From an uncultured Variovorax sp. (lineage in GTDB: Bacteria > Pseudomonadota > Gammaproteobacteria > Burkholderiales > Burkholderiaceae_C): DNA of 36,061 nucleotides. Shown here piece after piece: positions 27,370 to 36,061 of this stretch. Each line of letters opens with the position of its first letter. Within the stretch, counting starts at the first letter, position 1. The DNA is taken from contig CAJYQC010000055.1 of NCBI GenBank assembly GCA_913776885.1, positions 1-36,061 on the forward strand, written 5' to 3'. The notes below the pieces were generated by a model. The model was given only the letters and a program-made list of their open reading frames with translations. It was not told the origin of the DNA and did not search any database. A program made the translations under genes and the position numbers.

Positions 27370-28779
27370 TCACCGCCCGCCGCCACGATCCCCCAGGGTC
27401 GCGTGCGGATGCAGCGGATGCGCCAGCGTGTCCGCGATCAGCCGCAGCGCCTGGTCGCACTGCTCGCGCGTCATCGGGCCGCCCAGGCAGATGCGCACTG
27501 CGTCTGGCGGATCGCCGTCGGTGGAGAAGGCGGCGCTCGCGACCACGCCGACGTTCTGCGTGCGCAGGTAGGAGGCGAACTCCACCGGGCTCCAGCCGGG
27601 CGTGAGCGGCAGCCACGCATGAAAGCCTTCGGGGTGCGCCTGCAGGCCGCTGTCGCCCAGATGGCGCGAGGCCAGCGCCTGCCGCGCCATCGACTCGGCG
27701 CGCACAGCCTGCAGCATCTCCTCGGCCGTGCCGTCTTCGACCCACAGCGTCGTCAGCGCGTTGGTGATGGGCGAGGCCATCACGGTGGTCGCGCGCATCG
27801 CACCGGCCAGGCGCTGCGACTGCACCACCGTCGGCGAGCACACGTAGGCGCTGCGCAGCCCCGCGCCGAAGCACTTGGAGAAGCCGCTCACGTAGTAGGT
27901 GAGCCCCGGCGCGAGCGTGGTCAGCGACGCGGGCGTCTGCCGCGGCAGCATGCCGTAGGCGTCGTCCTCGATGATCGGCACCGCGTAGCGCAGCGCCACA
28001 TCGGCCAGCGCTTCGCGCCGCGCGCGCGACACGGTCGCGGACGTCGGGTTGAGCAGCGTGGGGTTGCAGTACAGCGCCTTGGGCTTGAGCGTCTTGCAGG
28101 CGTGCTCGAAGGCGTCGGCGATGGGGCCGTCGTCGTCCATCTGCAGCGCATGCAGCTGCACGCCGAGCTGCGCCGCGATGGCCTTCACGCCGGGGTAGGT
28201 GAGCGACTCCACGCAGACCAGCTCGCCGGGCCGTGCGAGCTGCGAGAACAGCGCGGTCAGCACGCCGTGGATGCCGGGGCACACCAGGATGCGATCGACG
28301 CTGGCGTCGGGCACGAAGGGCCGCAGCCAGTGCATCGCGGCAGCGCGGTCGTGCGCGGTGCCGCCGAAGTCCTGGTAGCGCAGCAGGTCGTGGAAATCGA
28401 CCTGCGCGAAGGCGCGGCTGGCGCTGTCGTGCAGGCGTGCCATCAGGTGCTCGTCGTCGGGCTCGGGCGGCATGTTCATCGTCATCTCGGCGCCGCTTCC
28501 ACCGCGCAGCCGCAGGCTAGGGCTGCCCGAGCGGATGAAGGTGCCGGTGCCCGCGCGCGAATCGATCAGCCCGCGCTTGCGCGCCTCGGCATAGCCGCGC
28601 GCGACAGTCGTGTAGTTGAGGTCGAGCTCCGCCGCCAGCTCGCGCAGCGTGGGCAGGCGGTCTCGCACGCCCAGGCGGCCGGTCTTGATGTCGTCGGCGA
28701 TCAGGTCGGCCAGCAGCAGGTAGGCCGGCCGGGCGGTGTTGCGCAGCTGCTTGCGCCAGTGGGCGGTGATGGTGGTCAT
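27370..28779 (-). CDS. MocR-type regulator (GntR HTH + aminotransferase domain)
   Basis: 469 residues joining an N-terminal GntR winged helix (about 18-82: LPTLRELAAELDLNYTTVAR, GLIDSRAGTGTFI) to a class I aminotransferase-like domain (about 115-460). The PLP residues are present: IIEDDAYG near 269-276 and the Schiff-base lysine in SGFSK (K302). MocR proteins (GabR, PdxR, TauR) sense amines or PLP adducts and bind direct repeats. This gene is divergent from the Nit1C operon, and the gap between them holds three pairs of direct repeats, so it is the likely regulator of that operon and of itself. Start 28779 precedes the GntR domain; a longer frame to 28830 is possible. No strong Shine-Dalgarno is seen. 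Confidence 0.93.
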   Translation of the reverse strand: MTTITAHWRKQLRNTARPAYLLLADLIADDIKTGRLGVRDRLPTLRELAAELDLNYTTVARGYAEARKRGLIDSRAGTGTFIRSGSPSLRLRGGSGAEMTMNMPPEPDDEHLMARLHDSASRAFAQVDFHDLLRYQDFGGTAHDRAAAMHWLRPFVPDASVDRILVCPGIHGVLTALFSQLARPGELVCVESLTYPGVKAIAAQLGVQLHALQMDDDGPIADAFEHACKTLKPKALYCNPTLLNPTSATVSRARREALADVALRYAVPIIEDDAYGMLPRQTPASLTTLAPGLTYYVSGFSKCFGAGLRSAYVCSPTVVQSQRLAGAMRATTVMASPITNALTTLWVEDGTAEEMLQAVRAESMARQALASRHLGDSGLQAHPEGFHAWLPLTPGWSPVEFASYLRTQNVGVVASAAFSTDGDPPDAVRICLGGPMTREQCDQALRLIADTLAHPLHPHATLGDRGGGR

Positions 28780-28799: not shown

Positions 28800-28823
28800 T
28801 TGATTGCATCCATTGATTGCATC
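28800..28823 (+). repeat. Direct repeat pair A, probable MocR operator
   Basis: Two perfect copies of TTGATTGCATC (28800-28810 and 28813-28823) with a 13-bp period, located 21 bp from the MocR start and thus suited to autoregulation. Confidence 0.6.
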
Positions 28824-28877
28824 TGGCCACCGATCAACATGCAGGAACCGCGCCCGCGCCAGAGGGGAAGGATGCTT

Positions 28878-28923
28878 CGATCAGGTGCGATCAACCCCAT
28901 TGATCGGGTGCATTGATCGCATG
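28878..28923. repeat. Repeat cluster B, probable MocR operator
   Basis: CGATCA occurs at 28878-28883 and 28888-28893, and is followed by two direct copies of CATTGATCG (28898-28906 and 28911-28919) with a 13-bp period. The first pair is the reverse complement of the core in the second. Confidence 0.6.
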
Positions 28924-29027
28924 GGGCGTGCTTCGTCGCGGTGCGGAAATGGCCGCCCGGGCCTGCTTCGCCGGAGCCTTTGCAGGCCCCGAAAGAATTT
29001 TTGCTGGCGCGCGGACCCCGCCGCTTC

Positions 29028-29049
29028 GCATTGATCGCGCATTGATCGC
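29028..29049 (+). repeat. Direct repeat pair C, probable MocR operator
   Basis: GCATTGATCGC is repeated perfectly head to tail (29028-29038 and 29039-29049). It ends 18 bp before the sigma-54-like promoter, a position from which a bound protein could act on it. Confidence 0.65.
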
Positions 29050-29067
29050 ACGGGCTGCGCCGGCCGC

Positions 29068-29082
29068 TGGCACAACGCCTGC
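29068..29082 (+). promoter_or_regulatory. Sigma-54 (RpoN) promoter of the Nit1C operon
   Basis: TGGCAC-AACGCC-TGC matches the -24/-12 consensus TGGCACG-N4-TTGC except for two bases. GG (29069-29070) and GC (29081-29082) are separated by exactly 10 bp, as RpoN requires. Transcription would begin near 29094, leaving a ~42-nt leader before nitB. RpoN control fits a nitrogen-scavenging operon. Confidence 0.65.
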
Positions 29083-29135
29083 GAAGAAGAAGGCACGCAA
29101 CACCTGCGTACCCCTTCACCCAACCGGAGTACCCC

Positions 29136-29618
29136 ATGCCCAAAGTCACCCGCCCCCGCAACGAAAAAGGCGAGTTCCTCGTCGACTACGAAGAGAAGGT
29201 GTTCGAAGACGTCAAGGCCGAGCCCGGAGAGAAAGCGCTCGTCACCTTCCACACGGTGGCCTTCGAGGGCTCCATCGGCTTTGTGAACCTTCTGCAGGCC
29301 ACGCGGCTCAAGCGCAAGGGCTACGACACGTCGGTGCTGCTCTACGGTCCCGGCGTGACGCTGGGCGTACAGCGTGGCTTTCCGACGCTGGGCGACGAGG
29401 CCTTCCCGGGCCACCAGAACTTCAACAAGCAGATCGCCAAGTTCATGGAGGAAGGCGGCAAGGTCTATGCGTGCCGCTTCGCGCTGCAGGCGCTCTACGG
29501 CCACGGCGAAGGCGCGCTGATCGAGGGCATCAAGCCGATCAACCCGCTGGACGTGCTCGACCTCGTGCTGCTGCACAAGAAGGCCGGCGCGGTCATTCTC
29601 GACACCTGGACGCTGTGA
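29136..29618 (+). CDS. nitB: Nit1C protein NitB (MSMEG_0572/Sll0783 family)
   Basis: 160 residues of the MSMEG_0572 nitrogen-starvation response family, the conserved first gene of Nit1C clusters. Recognisable stretches are [40 protein letters not shown] and [21 protein letters not shown]. It is soluble, with an alpha/beta pattern like DsrE-type folds (inference). Its biochemical role is unknown, though the cluster as a whole is needed for growth on cyanide in studied pseudomonads. The start has CGGAG 6 nt upstream. An extragenic repeat separates it from nitC, whereas the rest of the operon is tightly packed. Confidence 0.92.
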
Positions 29619-29756: not shown

Positions 29757-29763
29757 GATGACC

Positions 29764-30807
29764 ATGACCTCTTCTTCCCCCATCGTGCGGGCCGCGGCCA
29801 TCCAGATCGCGCCCGACTTCGAACGGCCGGACGGCACGCTGGAGCGCGTGTGCAGCGCCATCGACGCGGCCGCCGCGAAGGGCGCGCAGATCGCGGTCTT
29901 TCCCGAGACCTTCGTGCCGTACTACCCCTACTTCAGCTTCGTGCTGCCGCCGGTGCAGCAGGGTGCGCCGCACCTGCAGCTGGCCGAGCGCGCGGTGGTG
30001 GTGCCCGGCCCCGTCACGCAGGCGGTGGCCGAGCGGGCAAGGGCGCGAGGCATGGTGGTGGTGCTCGGCGTGAACGAGCGCGACCACGGCAGCCTCTACA
30101 ACACGCAGCTGGTGTTCGACGCCGATGGCACGCTGGTGCTCAAGCGCCGCAAGATCACGCCCACGTACCACGAGCGCATGGTCTGGGGCATGGGTGACGG
30201 CGCCGGCCTCAAGGTGGTCGACACCGCGGTCGGCCGCGTGGGCGCGCTGGCCTGCTGGGAGCACTACAACCCGCTCGCGCGCTACAGCCTGATGGCGCAG
30301 CACGAGCAGATCCACTGCGCGCAGTTCCCCGGCTCACTGGTCGGCCCGATCTTCGCGGAGCAGATGGAAGTGACCATCCGCCACCACGCGCTGGAGTCAG
30401 GCTGCTTCGTGGTCAACGCCACGGGCTGGCTCACCGACGAGCAGATCCGCTCGATCACGCCCGACACCAACCTGCAGAAGGCACTGCGCGGCGGCTGCCA
30501 TACCGCCATCGTCTCGCCCGAGGGCAAGCACCTCGCGTCGCCGCTCACCGAGGGCGAAGGCATGGTGGTGGCCGACCTCGACATGGCGCTCATCGCCAAG
30601 CGCAAGCGAATGATGGATTCGGTCGGCCACTACGCCCGGCCGGAACTGCTCTCGCTGGCCATCAACGACCGCCCGGCGCAGACCACCGTGCCGATGGATC
30701 GCACGCAACCCCACGTTCAACGGAGCCCAAAAAATGACCACGACGACACACCAAGACAGCCGGCAGCTGATGACCGAGCTCCAGTCCTTCGGGTTGCGGC
30801 TGGCTGA
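29764..30807 (+). CDS. nitC: Nit1C nitrilase NitC (Nit6803-type)
   Basis: 347-residue branch-1 nitrilase. The Glu-Lys-Cys triad is visible: E48 in [11 protein letters not shown]130 in [13 protein letters not shown] and C164 in [11 protein letters not shown]. It hydrolyses nitriles to the acid and ammonia; in Nit1C clusters this gene is essential for cyanide assimilation in the pseudomonads studied. ATG 29764 is preferred because AGGGG lies 6 nt upstream; ATG 29758 gives two more residues and is also possible. The core ends around the segment [15 protein letters not shown], but the frame runs on for ~34 Pro/Asp/Arg-rich residues that overlap nitD by 74 bp, an extension not expected in the family. 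Confidence 0.95.
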
Positions 30808-31852
30808 CCCTTCGGCCGGCGTATCGAGCCGCCGCGGCGGCGCGGGCCCTTCGGACCACAAGGCTGTGACGGTCGACGGCCACACGATCATGGTGCCGGT
30901 CCACACCTCCACCGCCTGGCACTCGCCCTTCACCGCGGAGGCGCCCGACGCCGCCGGCGTGAGCCGCGTGATGCGCGGCAGCATCCCGATCGCGAGCATC
31001 AGCTTTCCGAAGCAGCCGCGCTTCTACGCGATGCAGACCTTCGACGGCGTGCCGTATTCCCACATCGCCACGCTGCACGGCAGCGACGTGCTGGCCACCA
31101 CCGTGCTGCAGACCTGCATCCGCTACGAGAGCCGCAGCAAGAGCTGCAAGTTTTGCGCGATCGGCCAGTCGCTCGCGGCCGGGCGCACCGTCGCGCGAAA
31201 GACGCCCGAGCAGCTCGCCGAGGTGGCGCGCGCGGCCGTGCTGCTCGACGGCGTCAAGCACATGGTGATGACCACCGGAACTCCCAACGCCACCGACCGC
31301 GGCGCGGCCGTGCTGTGCGAGAGCGCCTTCGCGATCAAGGCCGCGGTGGACATCCCGATCCAGGGCCAGTGCGAGCCGCCCGACGACGACCAGTGGTTCC
31401 ACCGCATGAAGGCCGCGGGCATCGACACGCTGGGCATGCACCTGGAGGTGGTCACGCCCGAGGTGCGCGAGCGCATCATGCCGGGCAAGGCGAGCGTGCC
31501 CCTCTCGCGCTACATGAGCGCCTTCGAGGCGGCGGTGGGCGTGTTCGGGCGCGGGCAGGTCAGCACCTACATCCTGGCCGGGCTGGGCGACACGCGCGAG
31601 GCCATCCTCGAGACCTGCGACCAGCTGCTGGCGCGCGGCGTTTATCCCTTCGTCGTGCCCTTCGTGCCGATCAGCGGCACGCCGCTGGAAGATCACCCCG
31701 CACCCACGCCCGAGTTCATTAAGTCGCTGCTCGCGCCGCTGGGCGAGCGCGTGGTGGCGGCCGGCCTGCGCTCGGCCGACATAAAGGCCGGCTGCGGCAA
31801 ATGCGGCGCATGTTCGTCGCTTTCCATCTACGAAAAAGAAGGCGGGAGCTGA
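30734..31852 (+). CDS. nitD: Nit1C radical SAM protein NitD (MSMEG_0568 family)
   Basis: 372 residues. The cluster-binding cysteines are C128, C138 and C141, spaced C-x9-C-x2-C instead of the classical C-x3-C-x2-C, in the stretch [19 protein letters not shown] second group, C354-x2-C357-x2-C360 near the C-terminus (CGKCGAC), may bind an auxiliary cluster. TIM-barrel elements such as [30 protein letters not shown] and [13 protein letters not shown] follow. The chemistry is unknown. GGAG 8 nt upstream supports ATG 30734 even though it lies inside nitC. The next gene starts 2 nt after its stop, so nitD to nitG are tightly coupled. Confidence 0.94.
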
Positions 31853-31854
31853 CC

Positions 31855-32439
31855 ATGCTGTGCCTCGACGATCTCTGCGAGATGCGCGACCGGATGGGCG
31901 ACCACTATGCGCCCGTCGAGTACCTGGTGCGCGAGGCCGCGCAGCAGTGGGAGCGCGACGAGGCGATGGCGCTGCGCCGCGCGGTGTTCTGCATCGAGCA
32001 GGGCATCTTCGCGCGCGACGACCGCGATGCTATCGACGGCCATGCGCAGCTGCTGGTGGCCATGTCCTGCAACGGCGGCATGCCCGAGCAGGTGGTGGGC
32101 ACGGTGCGCATCCATCGCGGCGAGGGCAAGGCCGAAGGCGAGGGCGAATGGTGGGGTTCGCGGCTGGCCGTTCATCCCGCGTTCCGCAGCCAGGGGCATC
32201 TTGGCGCGACGCTGATCCGGCTCGCGGTCTCGCGTGCCAATGCGTTGGGCTGCAAGACCTTCCTGGCCCAGGTTCAGATGCAGAACGTGCCGCTGTTCCG
32301 CAAGCTCGGCTGGCAGGTGCTCGAGGAGACCAGCGTGCATGGCCGCCCGCATGCGCGCATGCAGGCCGATCTCGGCTGGTATCCGCCCTGCCACGATCCC
32401 GTGAGTGGCATCGTCACGCGCGCGAGGGTGGCGCCATGA
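31855..32439 (+). CDS. nitE: Nit1C GNAT acetyltransferase NitE (MSMEG_0567/Sll0786 family)
   Basis: 194-residue GNAT-fold protein. Acetyl-CoA is expected to bind at RLAVHPAFRSQGHLG, whose RSQGHLG matches the R/Q-x-x-G-x-G/A loop, and the following strand-helix reads CKTFLAQVQMQNVPLFRKLGW. An N-terminal segment (MLCLDDLCEMRDRMG) is peculiar to this Nit1C family. Substrate is unknown. Start ATG 31855 has GGGAG upstream and lies 2 nt after nitD; the frame is open to 31801 but that part is inside nitD. Its stop overlaps the nitF start (ATGA). Confidence 0.94.
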   Translation: MLCLDDLCEMRDRMGDHYAPVEYLVREAAQQWERDEAMALRRAVFCIEQGIFARDDRDAIDGHAQLLVAMSCNGGMPEQVVGTVRIHRGEGKAEGEGEWWGSRLAVHPAFRSQGHLGATLIRLAVSRANALGCKTFLAQVQMQNVPLFRKLGWQVLEETSVHGRPHARMQADLGWYPPCHDPVSGIVTRARVAP

Positions 32440-33443
32440 CGAGCGGAGTCCACGACATCGCCGAGGCGCTGCGCGCCACACGCGGCTTCGCGCACAAGCG
32501 CGACATCAGCGACGTGGTGTCGGCACTGGGCCGCTCGCTGCCCGGCGGACACGATGCGCTCGCGCAGGCCGTTCCGGTCGGCGACGACTGCGCAGCCATT
32601 TCCGACGGCCGCGGCGGCTACCTGCTGTTCGCCATCGAGGGGCTGGTGGAAGACTTCATCGTGCGCATGCCCTGGTTCGCGGGCTACTGCGGCGTGATGG
32701 TCAACGTGAGCGACGTCTACGCCATGGGCGGACGCCCGACGGCCGTGGTCGACGCGCTGTGGAGCACGGGCATGAACCCGGCCCACGACATGCTGCGTGG
32801 CATGGCCGAGGCCTCCGCGCGCTACGGCGTGCCCATCGTCGGCGGGCACAGCAACAACCGCAGCGACCGGCCGCAGCTCGCCGTGGCCATCCTCGGCCAC
32901 GCGCGCAGGCTGCTCACCAGCTTCGATGCGAAGCCGGGTGACCTTCTCTTGATGGCCGCCGACCTGCGCGGCGCCTACGAAGAACCTTTCCCGTACTGGA
33001 ACGCGTCGACCCGCGCGCCTGCCGCACGGCTGCGCGCCGACCTCGAACTGCTGCCCTCCATCGCAGAGAGCGGCCTGTGCCGAGCCGCCAAGGACATCAG
33101 CATGGCCGGCGCCGTGGGCACGGCCATGATGCTGCTCGAATGCTCGGGCGTCGGTGCGCGCATCGACCTCGACGCGATCCCGCGGCCCGAGGGCGTGCCG
33201 CTGCTGCGCTGGCTGTCGTCCTTTCCGAGCTACGGGTTCGTGCTGAGCGTGTCGCCCGCGCAGGCGGCGGCAGTGGCTGTCCGGTTCGCCGCGCGCGACA
33301 TCGCGTGCTCGGTGATCGGCCAGGTCGATGCCACACGCCAGGTTCGGCTGAGCGCGGGGCACGAAGAGGCGCTGTTGTGGGACTTCGCCAGCGACGCCTT
33401 CATCCAGCCGGCGGCCGACACGCGGGAGGCGACGTATGTCTGA
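32436..33443 (+). CDS. nitF: Nit1C AIR synthase-like protein NitF (Sll0787 family)
   Basis: 335 residues of the PurM/SelD/ThiL-like superfamily. The ATP-binding N-terminal domain shows VGDDCAAISD (about 48-57), VMVNVSDVYAMGGRPTAVVD (about 88-107) and VGGHSNNRSDRPQLAV, followed by the C-terminal AIRS domain with AAKDISMAGAVGTAMML. It is expected to phosphorylate or ATP-activate a small substrate; in the pathway this is unknown. ATG 32436 overlaps the nitE stop by 4 bp; the longer frame back to 31860 lies within nitE and is not family-like. A 42-codon frame begins 8 bp before its stop. Confidence 0.94.
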   Translation: MTSGVHDIAEALRATRGFAHKRDISDVVSALGRSLPGGHDALAQAVPVGDDCAAISDGRGGYLLFAIEGLVEDFIVRMPWFAGYCGVMVNVSDVYAMGGRPTAVVDALWSTGMNPAHDMLRGMAEASARYGVPIVGGHSNNRSDRPQLAVAILGHARRLLTSFDAKPGDLLLMAADLRGAYEEPFPYWNASTRAPAARLRADLELLPSIAESGLCRAAKDISMAGAVGTAMMLLECSGVGARIDLDAIPRPEGVPLLRWLSSFPSYGFVLSVSPAQAAAVAVRFAARDIACSVIGQVDATRQVRLSAGHEEALLWDFASDAFIQPAADTREATYV

Positions 33444-33564
33444 TCGCACCTTGCGCATCGCTGCAGCCTCGCGGCTGTCGGGGCGCGTCGGCTGGCATGC
33501 CAGCACCGGACGCCTCGCGGCGCTGTACCGCGCCGGGCTGCAGGAGACCGAAGCATGCCCGTGA
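33436..33564 (+). CDS. Small ORF between nitF and nitG (42 aa)
   Basis: A 42-codon frame starts at ATG 33436, inside the last codons of nitF, and stops at 33564, 10 bp inside nitG. It reads MSDRTLRIAAASRLSGRVG then WHASTGRLAALYRAGLQETE and ends ACP, so it is basic, helical-looking and free of membrane segments. It exactly bridges a gap in an otherwise overlapping operon, so it could be translated by coupling or be a remnant of a larger gene. No family is recognised. Confidence 0.35.
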   Translation: MSDRTLRIAAASRLSGRVGWHASTGRLAALYRAGLQETEACP

Positions 33565-33839
33565 TGCATTTCCACGTGCGCTGGCCCGACGCCAGCGAAA
33601 CCCGCTGCTATTCGCCTTCGCAGGTGGTGCGCGACTTCCTCGTGCCCGGCGAGCGTTACGACCTCGACGACTTCCTCATGCGCACACGTGAAGCGCTGGG
33701 CATCGCCTCGGAGCGGGTGCGCGCGAAGTACGGCTTCGCCTGCTCGCAGGCGATGGACCAGCTCGCAGAAATCGAAGGCATCGCCGCGCGCTTTGGCGCC
33801 ACCCCCGGTGCGAAGGTCACCGTCATCGCCTTCGACTGA
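33555..33839 (+). CDS. nitG: Nit1C protein NitG (MSMEG_0570 family)
   Basis: 94 residues of the MSMEG_0570 nitrogen-starvation response family, with the signature MPVMHFHVRWPDASETRCYS, SQVVRDFLVPGERYDLDDF and GFACSQAMDQLAEIE. It is small, soluble and acidic, with one Cys in GFACSQ. Its role is unknown; co-conservation with nitC to nitF suggests a helper in the same pathway. The start has GGAG 9 nt upstream. nitH follows after 39 bp. Confidence 0.94.
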   Translation: MPVMHFHVRWPDASETRCYSPSQVVRDFLVPGERYDLDDFLMRTREALGIASERVRAKYGFACSQAMDQLAEIEGIAARFGATPGAKVTVIAFD

Positions 33840-33878
33840 CCTGACCCGCTACATCCAGAGAGAGAAAGAGAGACCCTC

Positions 33879-35183
33879 ATGTCACACCCCTACGGCGGAC
33901 GCAGCCACTACAGCGTCGTCATCGTCGGCGGCGGCCAGGCCGGCCTGTCGCTGAGCTACTGCCTGCAGCTGCGCGGCATCGACCACCTCGTGATCGAGAA
34001 GCGAAGCCTCGTGCACACCTGGCGCACGCAGCGCTGGGACTCGTTCTGCCTCGTCACGCCCAACTGGCAGTGCCAGCTGCCGGGCTGGGGCTACAAGGGC
34101 AGCGATCCGCACGGCTTCATGGTCAAGGACCAGATCAACGAGTGGCTCGCCGGTTTCGTCGAGCATGTGAAAGCGCCGGCCATCGAGGGCGTGACGGTGG
34201 AGCGGGTGGCGCGCGACGGCGAACGCGAGCGCTTCAACGTGCAGACCGACGCCGGCCTCTACACCGCCGACCAGGTGGTGGTGGCCTCGGGCGGCTACCA
34301 CCGTCCCATCGTGCCGCGCCTGGCCGAGAAGCTGCCGGCGGGCGTCGCGCAGTTCCATTCGGCGCAGTACCGCAACCCGGCGCAGCTGCCCGAGGGCGCG
34401 GTGCTGGTGGTGGGCTGCGGGCAGTCGGGCGCGCAGATCGCCGAAGACCTGCACCTGGCCGGCCGCAAGGTGCACCTGGCCACCGGCAATGCGCCGCGTT
34501 GCGCGCGCTTCTATCGCGGCCGCGAGGTGGTCGACTGGCTCGCCGACATGAAGTACTACGACATGCCCGTCACCGAGCACCCGCTGCGCGAAGGCGTGCG
34601 CGACAACACCAACCACTACGTGACGGGCCGCGACGGCGGCCGCGACATCGACCTGCGGCGCTTCGCCCTCGAAGGCATGGAACTCTACGGTCTGCTCGGC
34701 GGCTTCGATGGTGGCGCCTTCGAGTTCCAGCCGAACCTGCGCGACAACCTCGACCAGGCCGATGGCACCTACAACCGCATCAACGCATCGATCGACAAGT
34801 ACATCACCGCGCAGGGCATCGAGGCGCCGCCGCCTTCGGTCTACACGCCCGTGTGGGAGCCGTCGCAGGAACGCACGCGGCTCGACCTTGCAGCGGCCGG
34901 CATCACCAGCGTGGTCTGGTGCATCGGCTTCTCGCCCGATTTCGCGTGGGTCGACGCGCCCGTGTTCAACGGCCGCGGCGCGCCCGTGCACCTGCGCGGC
35001 GTGACGCGCGAGCCGGGGCTCTATTTCCTTGGCCTGCCATGGCTGCATACCTGGGGCTCGGGGCGCTTCTCGGGCGTGGCGCGCGACGCGGAGTTTCTCG
35101 CGGAGGCCATCGAGGGATATCGAGTTCAGCTGCGTGGCACGCGGGCCGATACCGGCGCGCCGATGAGCCTGCAGGCGGCATAG
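33879..35183 (+). CDS. nitH: Nit1C FAD-dependent oxidoreductase NitH (MSMEG_0569 family)
   Basis: 434-residue flavoprotein of the FMO-like branch. The N-terminal FAD-binding GxGxxG is [12 protein letters not shown] (13-24), and a second Rossmann loop for NAD(P)H is [17 protein letters not shown] (174-190). FHSAQYRNP (158-166) resembles the FMO linker motif. It probably oxygenates or oxidises a nitrogen compound in the cyanide-assimilation pathway, but the reaction is unproven. A GAGAG-rich leader 8-20 nt upstream supports ATG 33879. It is the last gene of the operon, followed 14 bp later by a hairpin. Confidence 0.95.
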
Positions 35184-35769: not shown

Positions 35770-35854
35770 TTCCTGTCGTTACAAGTCGCTCGTGTTGCGC
35801 GCAATGTATCCATCAGTTTTACCGATTTGATCGCGCAGAGCGATCGAGCGATGT

Positions 35855-36061
35855 GGCACGCAGTTTGCGGAGCGCTATGCGAAGAAGGCGGTGGAATTCC
35901 TCAACGCATGGTCGTCGACCTTGACCGAGCTGGGCGGCAACTCCAACGTCTTCCTCGCCTCGGGCCTCTACGGCAACCAGTGGGCCAACGCTGCGGAATT
36001 GATGCGCAGCTACCCCGGCTGGGCGAAGGAAGACGTCGCGCGCTTCCAGACCATGCTGCTG
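35855..36061 (+). pseudogene. Alginate lyase family fragment, 5' end missing
   Basis: From about 35858 to the right edge the frame reads TQFAERYAKKAVEFLNAW, STLTELGGNSNVFLASGLYG, NQWANAAELMRSYPGW, which is the helical-toroid pattern of the alginate lyase (PF05426) family. In that family these residues normally come well after a signal peptide and ~100 or more residues. Here the frame is stopped by TGA at 35828-35830, no ATG or other usable start lies between, and the text before TQFAERY is unrelated. The gene appears to be beheaded; the window ends before its 3' part, so the remainder is not visible. Confidence 0.6.

What the first reader, a model, noticed from the sequence alone, without database searches (positions are those of the whole stretch)
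28800..29082. MocR direct repeats stacked upstream of a sigma-54 promoter for Nit1C
Seen: paired direct repeats TTGATTGCATC x2 (13-bp period), CATTGATCG x2 (13-bp period) and GCATTGATCGC x2 (11-bp period), and TGGCAC-N6-TGC with exactly 10 bp between GG and GC. Known: MocR regulators bind direct repeats; the Pseudomonas Nit1C cluster is controlled by an RpoN-dependent activator (NitA). Here no NitA gene is adjacent and a MocR protein sits in its place. Inference: a PLP-dependent sensor may gate an RpoN promoter, an uncommon pairing.
Basis: partly seen in the sequence, partly recalled or inferred. Interest (0 to 1): 0.75.

Follow-up and report, generated by a model that had tools for sequence, protein, structure and literature searches.

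The report
PLP sensor phased with NtrC/sigma-54 promoter
A soil bacterium's nitrile/cyanide-nitrogen gene cluster appears to be switched by two inputs at one promoter, general nitrogen starvation and a vitamin-B6-type sensor protein, laid out on one face of the DNA; the layout is conserved in related bacteria, but no experiment has tested it yet.

Summary
In detail: all repeats and the GG-N10-GC element are where stated. Footprinting shows they are under selection: in 110 distinct nitB upstream regions a sigma-54 site occurs in 104 (shuffles: mean 9.9, max 16) and TTGATYG pairs in 100 (shuffles: 0). A divergent MocR gene sits beside nitB in 30 of 30 and 102 of 110 fetched loci, two overlapping sets of near relatives, so the pairing is common. 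The genome encodes NtrC and RpoN; no full-length NitA was found. Best reading: NtrC drives divergent sigma-54 promoters; MocR is the substrate-specific gate and autorepressor. The sign of MocR's action on nitB is unresolved. There are no binding or expression data.

The parts
27370..28779 (-). mocR-type regulator gene (GntR wHTH + class I aminotransferase domain, candidate PLP lysine K302)
   Evidence: Pfam GntR 41.6 bits (cut-off 27) and Aminotran_1_2 85.8 (cut-off 19.7); best NCBIfam model EhuR 387.7 bits, below its cut-off 480; SKCFG motif starting at residue 301
28800..28823 (+). box I: TTGATTGCATC x2, 13-bp period, in the predicted mocR leader (about +8 to +31 if mocR starts near 28830)
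28841..28854 (-). reverse sigma-54 -24/-12 site (GGCGCGGTTCCTGC) towards mocR; predicted start near 28830
   Evidence: a site of this type near mocR in 79 of 110 spacers, shuffle mean 6.5, max 10; none of L009-L038 is in the list of spacers lacking it (alignment)
28873..28889 (+). NtrC-like site 1 TGCTTC-GATCA-GGTGCG (10 of 12 consensus positions)
28900..28921 (+). box II: TTGATCGGGTGCATTGATCGCA, 13-bp period
28929..28945 (+). NtrC-like site 2 TGCTTC-GTCGC-GGTGCG (10 of 12), 16 bp after the start of box II's second half, 56 bp after site 1
28993..29003 (+). short A/T tract upstream of box III (candidate bend)
   Evidence: A/T run of 8 or more in the 62 bp upstream of box III in 46 of 103 spacers vs 3% after shuffling; the window's own run is 7
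29031..29050 (+). box III: TTGATCGCGCATTGATCGCA, 11-bp period; second half starts 26 bp before TGG
   Evidence: pair-anchored distance 25-26 in 92 and 35-37 in 10 of the 102 spacers with a pair scoring 15 or more of 18
29068..29083 (+). sigma-54 -24/-12 element TGGCACAACGCCTGCG for nitB; predicted start near 29094
29136..29618 (+). nitB (TIGR04044)
   Evidence: 282.8 bits, cut-off 109.85
29758..30807 (+). nitC, Nit6803-family nitrilase (TIGR04048)
   Evidence: 581.2 bits, cut-off 502.6
30734..31852 (+). nitD, radical SAM (TIGR04043)
   Evidence: 606.9 bits, cut-off 303.7
31801..32439 (+). nitE, N-acetyltransferase (TIGR04045)
   Evidence: 227.2 bits, cut-off 68.45
32502..33443 (+). nitF, AIR synthase-like (TIGR04049)
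   Evidence: 459.6 bits, cut-off 321.3
33879..35183 (+). nitH, flavin-dependent oxidoreductase (TIGR04046)
   Evidence: 675.2 bits, cut-off 498.35

Best explanation
The mocR-nitB spacer is a two-input sigma-54 switch. Under nitrogen limitation phosphorylated NtrC binds the two central 17-bp sites and, by looping, activates two divergent sigma-54 promoters, one for the nit operon and one for mocR. MocR, a PLP-bearing sensor, binds three pairs of TTGATYGCA repeats: box I in its own predicted leader (autorepression), box II between the NtrC sites, and box III just upstream of the nitB -24 element. Box II, box III, the NtrC site and the -24 element tend to keep one helical phase, so MocR most likely acts in the same looped complex and licenses nit transcription only when a cognate amine-bearing ligand (for example an aminonitrile) forms an external aldimine with its PLP. 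Shown: sites, conservation, phasing, gene linkage, presence of NtrC and RpoN genes. Inferred: binding, direction of effect, ligand. I lean slightly to induced co-activation of nitB (about 55:45 over pure repression).
For: Sigma-54 site 104/110, TTGATYG pairs 100/110, reverse site 79/110, each far above 20 sets of dinucleotide shuffles. NtrC motif at 10 or more of 12 in 88/110 with boxes masked; none of 80 permuted palindromes reaches this (mean 4.6, max 48). Phasing at 10.5 bp, related values collapsed at 86% nitB DNA identity: box III R=0.94 (0 of 20000 random sets as high), NtrC R=0.67 (p below 0.001), NtrC sites anchored to box II R=0.79 (p=0.008, 7 values), box II R=0.60 (p=0.02); controls nitB ATG R=0.09 and mocR ATG R=0.07. 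On a 96-protein MocR tree box III spacing changes class at least 3 times and box II turn class at least 10 times. MocR linkage 30/30 and 102/110. In six loci without upstream MocR a 70-74% identical MocR lies elsewhere, by eye at the end of the nit operon; box I and the reverse promoter are gone while nitB-side elements stay. NtrC above its cut-off, two RpoN-type genes, no full-length NitA. The pair pattern occurs only here in the assembly.
Against: No binding, start-site or expression data. The NtrC motif is degenerate: at 9 of 12 it hardly discriminates (109/110 against up to 92 for permuted motifs); a looser anchored form is missing in 25 of 110 spacers; the window's two sites have two mismatches each and are not among the 30 genome sites with at most one mismatch. 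The distance between boxes II and III alone is not significantly phased under the strict collapse (R=0.52, p=0.09). Six spacers lack the canonical -24, 10 lack perfect pairs, 31 lack the reverse site. Two alphaproteobacterial loci with weak MocR relatives (L218 35%, L220 39%) show neither a canonical sigma-54 site nor pairs. Relatedness among spacers was only partly removed, and the box II turn classes were set after seeing the distances.
Confidence: 0.68

Rival explanations
1. MocR is a plain repressor: NtrC and sigma-54 do all activation, and MocR bound at boxes I-III blocks or loops out the promoter until an inducer removes it.
For: EnuR (the EhuR type, nearest NCBIfam model) is described as a repressor (PMC5924519 passages), and for the P. 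pseudoalcaligenes cio-cluster MocR a negative role is suggested (PMC8567248 passages). Box I position suits autorepression; looping repression also needs phasing.
Against: No box overlaps the nitB -24/-12 element or predicted start; phased upstream sites are also typical of activators (general knowledge).
Confidence: 0.38
2. The sigma-54 promoter is driven by another enhancer-binding protein, not NtrC.
For: The assembly holds 9 strong Sigma54_activat proteins; the NtrC-like sites are imperfect.
Against: The NtrC palindrome beats all 80 permuted versions; of seven of the nine activators scanned, only one passes an equivalog cut-off and it is NtrC; no activator gene was seen beside nit in the MocR-type plasmid regions annotated.
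Confidence: 0.2
3. The TTGATYG boxes belong to a different DNA-binding protein and MocR is merely a neighbour.
For: Box-to-protein assignment rests on co-occurrence only.
Against: Pairs absent in the NitA-type loci L219 and L223; present where MocR is linked, including where mocR has moved; direct repeats one or several turns apart are one documented MocR operator form (27% of regulons had two or three direct repeats; PMC5320631 section 9); box I goes with the divergent mocR gene.
Confidence: 0.08
4. Chance or compositional artefact.
For: Single sigma-54 consensus matches are not rare in the window (7).
Against: Shuffle controls, conservation across genera and phasing.
Confidence: 0.01

Closest known systems
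Pseudomonas nit1C with NitA (Fis-family sigma-54 activator)
   Same: Same nit cluster; regulator divergent upstream (PMC11049912 passages). The Acinetobacter regions L219 and L223 look like it, with a GG-N10-GC site before nitB.
   Different: Here no NitA but MocR, NtrC-like sites and TTGATYG pairs, which the two NitA-type spacers lack.
EnuR/EhuR (ectoine) MocR regulators
   Same: Best-scoring NCBIfam model; PLP lysine; ligands carry a primary amine (PMC5924519 passages).
   Different: 387.7 bits, below cut-off 480; the related EutR motif is called palindromic in a cut-off passage (PMC5320631); the passages seen do not mention sigma-54.
GabR of Bacillus subtilis
   Same: Activator of the neighbouring operon and repressor of its own gene (PMC5924519 passage); direct-repeat operator (PMC5320631 passage): the layout suggested here.
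   Different: Not an NtrC/sigma-54 promoter (recalled).
NtrC plus pathway-specific regulator: E. coli rut/RutR and AtzR of Pseudomonas sp. ADP (both recalled)
   Same: An NtrC/sigma-54 promoter combined with a specific regulator, in the AtzR case with autorepression. One search shows only that rutA-rutR is listed among NtrC/RpoN targets; no AtzR paper was in the 12 listed.
   Different: TetR- or LysR-type regulators, not a PLP-dependent MocR.

Membership tests
MocR subfamily of GntR | GntR wHTH plus fold-type I aminotransferase domain | tested here: met
   PF00392 and PF00155 above cut-offs
MocR subfamily of GntR | PLP-binding lysine | tested here: met
   K302 and its equivalent in 24 of 24 loci rows displayed, the window's included; PLP binding itself not testable
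MocR subfamily of GntR | binds repeated boxes one or several helical turns apart | tested here: inconclusive
   direct repeats present and conserved; binding not tested
EhuR/EnuR | score above the curated cut-off | tested here: not met
   387.7 against 480 bits
sigma-54 promoter | GG-N10-GC within a TGGCAC-N5-TTGC-like consensus | tested here: met
   TGGCACAACGCCTGC, with CTGC in place of TTGC; site in 104 of 110 spacers
sigma-54 promoter | start about 12 bp after -12 and RpoN dependence | not testable with these tools
   needs 5'-RACE and an rpoN mutant
NtrC-activated promoter | 17-bp TGCACC-N5-GGTGCA-type enhancer upstream | tested here: met
   two sites, 10 of 12 each; motif enrichment against permuted motifs; consensus form in PMC8743547 passage. 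Degenerate; see evidence against
NtrC-activated promoter | NtrC and RpoN encoded | tested here: met
   TIGR01818 670.2 bits, cut-off 558.6; two PF04552 hits over cut-off
NtrC-activated promoter | NtrC binds and activates | not testable with these tools
   needs footprinting and an ntrC mutant
NitA-controlled nit1C | NitA-type activator present | tested here: not met
   nine strong matches of an Acinetobacter NitA-type protein lie within its residues 299-639 only; the tenth, weak one covers 170-303; assembly 89% complete
Nit1C cluster | nitB, C, D, E, F, H families in order | tested here: met
   six NCBIfam models above cut-off
Nit1C cluster | nitG | not tested
   the 33444-33878 stretch was not scanned

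The most novel reading that the evidence does not exclude
A PLP-dependent MocR sensor is an architectural co-activator built into an NtrC/sigma-54 enhancer loop: MocR at boxes II and III, NtrC and the -24 element on one DNA face, so that the ligand's chemistry on PLP decides whether NtrC reaches the polymerase. The PLP chemistry would mean that the natural nit signal is an amine, pointing to an aminonitrile-type substrate for the Nit1C family.
Probability: 0.27. Interest if true: 0.8.

Novelty: new variant of a known kind. Interest (0 to 1): 0.62.

Why it matters
A conserved NtrC + MocR + sigma-54 module would explain nitrogen control of nit outside the NitA-type bacteria, give a testable case of a PLP sensor gating an enhancer-dependent promoter, and make MocR a ready-made assay for the natural ligand of a cluster whose physiological substrate is unclear (recalled). 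Searches of the held open-access library for MocR with sigma-54 (8 papers hold both, 7 listed), for at least three of MocR, NtrC, RpoN, PLP (13 papers) and for nitrilase, MocR and cluster (5 papers) showed no paper on such a module, judged by titles and abstract starts and, for PMC8567248, PMC11049912, PMC9249168, PMC5924519 and PMC8743547, by passages. Subscription papers are not covered.

Tried and rejected
Rejected: chance (shuffles). Rejected: MocR as sole activator, because it lacks the AAA+ domain. A sigma-70 alternative: best hexamer pairs in the spacer score 7 of 12, not convincing but not excluded. The first NtrC scan used a wrong spacing and was replaced; the next was confounded by box I (TGCATCCATTGATTGCA) and was redone with boxes masked. 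The glnK-operon upstream region of the genome and relatives gave a clear sigma-54 site and an NtrC-like right half (AAGATGGTGCG) but a less canonical left half, so no matrix was built from it. A class-wide sample gave 4 genomes over the cut-off of 369, the own one included. The B. cenocepacia NtrC paper (PMC5491218, passages) has no mention of nitrilase.

Corrected on re-check: the box III distance took the last perfect half-site, so in seven spacers with a degenerate second half (L070, L099, L112, L128, L137, L182, L185) it measured the first half and put them in the far class. The pair-anchored measure gives 92 spacers at 25-26 bp and 10 at 35-37; the tree then shows at least 3 near/far changes, not the 7, and the II-III distance is no longer significant under the strict collapse. 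I lowered the best explanation from 0.70 to 0.68 and the novel case from 0.30 to 0.27 for this.

Rows dropped before counts: the 110 spacers are the 97 distinct ones among 132 loci with both genes (of the 140 loci L009-L148) plus 13 added (L066, L070, L072, L082, L086, L087 as 330 bp upstream of nitB; L182-L186; L149; L151). Not in that set and described apart: L101 and L109 (contig ends), L150 (no MocR upstream), L217-L220, L223. One search used the 104 spacers with a canonical sigma-54 site (103 with a full nitB for clustering) and, for the tree, 96 MocR rows over 330 residues. Loci sets are capped samples: one search kept the best 80 of 494 confirmed matches, fetched 30 of 34 genomes over the cut-off, and 10 of 515 plasmid records were opened.

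Full report
What was checked. The genes are a MocR-type regulator (27370-28779, minus strand; Pfam domains) and nitB, C, D, E, F and H of the Nit1C cluster, all over NCBIfam cut-offs. Three TTGATYG pairs exist in the window and all lie in this 356-bp spacer; the 13-bp pair pattern, two mismatches allowed, hits only this spacer in the 5.48-Mb assembly.

Conservation within the genus. nitB was found in 36 of 101 genomes searched, the own one included. Thirty loci were fetched and all 30 carry MocR divergent to nitB, 71.7-100% identical over the stretch held, the 100% row being the window itself. In the aligned spacers TGGCACANNGCNTGC is invariant in 30 of 30; the three repeat-pair regions and a reverse GGC..G.TTC.TGC-like site near mocR are conserved, with variants in some half-sites.

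Conservation beyond the genus. A scan of a collection of 84,980 species genomes confirmed 494 relatives, of which the best 80 were returned; a family search matched 43 of 299 genomes, 34 over the cut-off, and 30 loci were fetched. These sets overlap the first one and lean to near relatives. Of the 110 loci, 102 have MocR next to nitB; two begin at a contig edge; six (five Methyloversatilis records and L072) have none upstream. In those six genomes a 70-74% identical MocR lies elsewhere; translated neighbours show nitH-like sequence ahead of it, i.e. the end of the nit operon (read by eye). There box I and the reverse promoter are gone, but box II/III-type repeats, a sigma-54 site and an NtrC-like site remain in front of nitB. 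A class-wide sample added three loci over the cut-off, two with MocR (L149, L151) and one without (L150). Ten of 515 plasmid records were opened: Burkholderia anthina, Paraburkholderia, Aquabacterium, Klebsiella, Rhizobium sp. (gene in pieces) and R. daejeonense pair MocR with nit; Sagittula has a 39% relative and Acetobacter a 35% relative in the same direction as nitB. The two Acinetobacter records carry a sigma-54-interacting, NitA-type regulator instead; their spacers have a GG-N10-GC site but no TTGATYG pairs.

Statistics. Over 110 distinct spacers: sigma-54 site in 104 (shuffle mean 9.9, max 16), repeat pairs in 100 (0), reverse sigma-54 in 79 (6.5, max 10). The reverse site is present in 71 of 75 spacers with MocR at least 60% identical, 7 of 22 below that, and 1 of the 13 added ones. 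The six spacers without the canonical forward site (four Pseudacidovorax records, L120, L126) keep GG-N10-GC at the same distance from box III.

The missing activator. A sigma-54 promoter needs an enhancer-binding protein. Two 17-bp sites, TGCTTC-N5-GGTGCG, flank box II (28873-28889, 28929-28945). With boxes masked, the NtrC palindrome reaches at least 10 of 12 in 88 of 110 spacers; 80 permuted palindromes average 4.6 and never exceed 48; at 11 of 12 it is 19 against a mean of 0.5 and a maximum of 9. At 9 of 12 the test does not discriminate well (109 against up to 92). The E. coli consensus is given as TGCACCAnnnTGGTGCA (PMC8743547, passage). With at most one mismatch to TGCACY-N5-RGTGCA the assembly has 30 sites against 10 for the reversed control, and the nit sites, with two mismatches and a final G, are not among them. 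The assembly encodes an NtrC over its equivalog cut-off and two RpoN-type proteins; a NitA-type protein from Acinetobacter indicus finds no full-length match, its nine strong hits lying within residues 299-639.

Phasing. Measured from the second half of the best 11-bp pair, box III lies 25-26 bp before the -24 TGG in 92 and 35-37 bp in 10 of 102 spacers. Box II and the NtrC site lie at distances that also step by about 10-11 bp. After collapsing related values (86% nitB DNA identity, distinct distances only) the circular concentration at 10.5 bp is 0.94 for box III (0 of 20000 random sets as high), 0.67 for the last NtrC-like site (p below 0.001), 0.79 for NtrC-like sites anchored to box II (p=0.008, 7 values) and 0.60 for box II (p=0.02); for the II-III distance it is 0.52 (p=0.09, not significant). 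Distances to the nitB and mocR start codons give 0.09 and 0.07. With a finer collapse (92%) all the site distances are significant and both start-codon controls are not. On a 96-protein MocR tree the box III spacing changes class at least 3 times and the box II turn class, defined after the fact, at least 10 times. Spacings thus change by about whole turns, which suggests one looped protein-DNA complex. An earlier measure overstated the far class; see Tried and rejected.

Mechanism. In the window the predicted mocR start (about 28830) puts box I in the leader, a place suited to autorepression. Box II sits between the NtrC sites, and box III at about -63 to -44 of the predicted nitB start, overlapping neither the -24 nor the -12. 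The layout resembles GabR (activator of its neighbour operon, repressor of itself; PMC5924519 passages), whereas EnuR is described as a repressor (same passages) and a negative role is suggested for a P. pseudoalcaligenes MocR at the cio/nit4 cluster (PMC8567248 passages). I therefore leave the sign at nitB at about 55:45 in favour of induced co-activation. Because the PLP chemistry of these regulators needs a primary amine, the ligand should be an amine, perhaps an aminonitrile; that is inference.

Verdict. Observation confirmed; interpretation extended: not an odd replacement of NitA but a conserved, largely helically phased NtrC + MocR + sigma-54 module found in several proteobacterial groups. 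It is a new variant of known kinds of control. What is missing is any wet evidence.

Noticed in passing
window 35827-35869: A single TTGATCG half-site 27 bp before another sigma-54-like site (TGGCACGCAGTTTGCG), about 640 bp after nitH; conserved in one relative (L228), where it precedes a gene with alginate-lyase and laminin-G-like domains, but not found in six other relatives' regions.
   Followed up: partly
window about 35870: Compared with that relative, about 540 bp are missing between this site and the gene interior near the contig end; deletion or assembly fault.
   Followed up: partly
plasmid collection; L186: Of 515 plasmid records with a nitB relative, 374 are Klebsiella and 30 Escherichia; the one Klebsiella region read (L186) carries the MocR-nit layout.
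   Followed up: partly
G268:C40:42961-47590: One relative carries two nitB copies about 4 kb apart with equal scores.
   Followed up: no
own genome C213 and C343: Two genes with a sigma-54 (RpoN) DNA-binding domain.
   Followed up: no
window 28831 and 28888: Inverted TTGATYG half-sites beside the direct pairs, so MocR might bind mixed direct and inverted repeats.
   Followed up: no
L218, L220: Alphaproteobacterial nit clusters with 35-39% MocR relatives lack canonical sigma-54 sites and TTGATYG pairs, so the promoter type seems to change with distance.
   Followed up: partly
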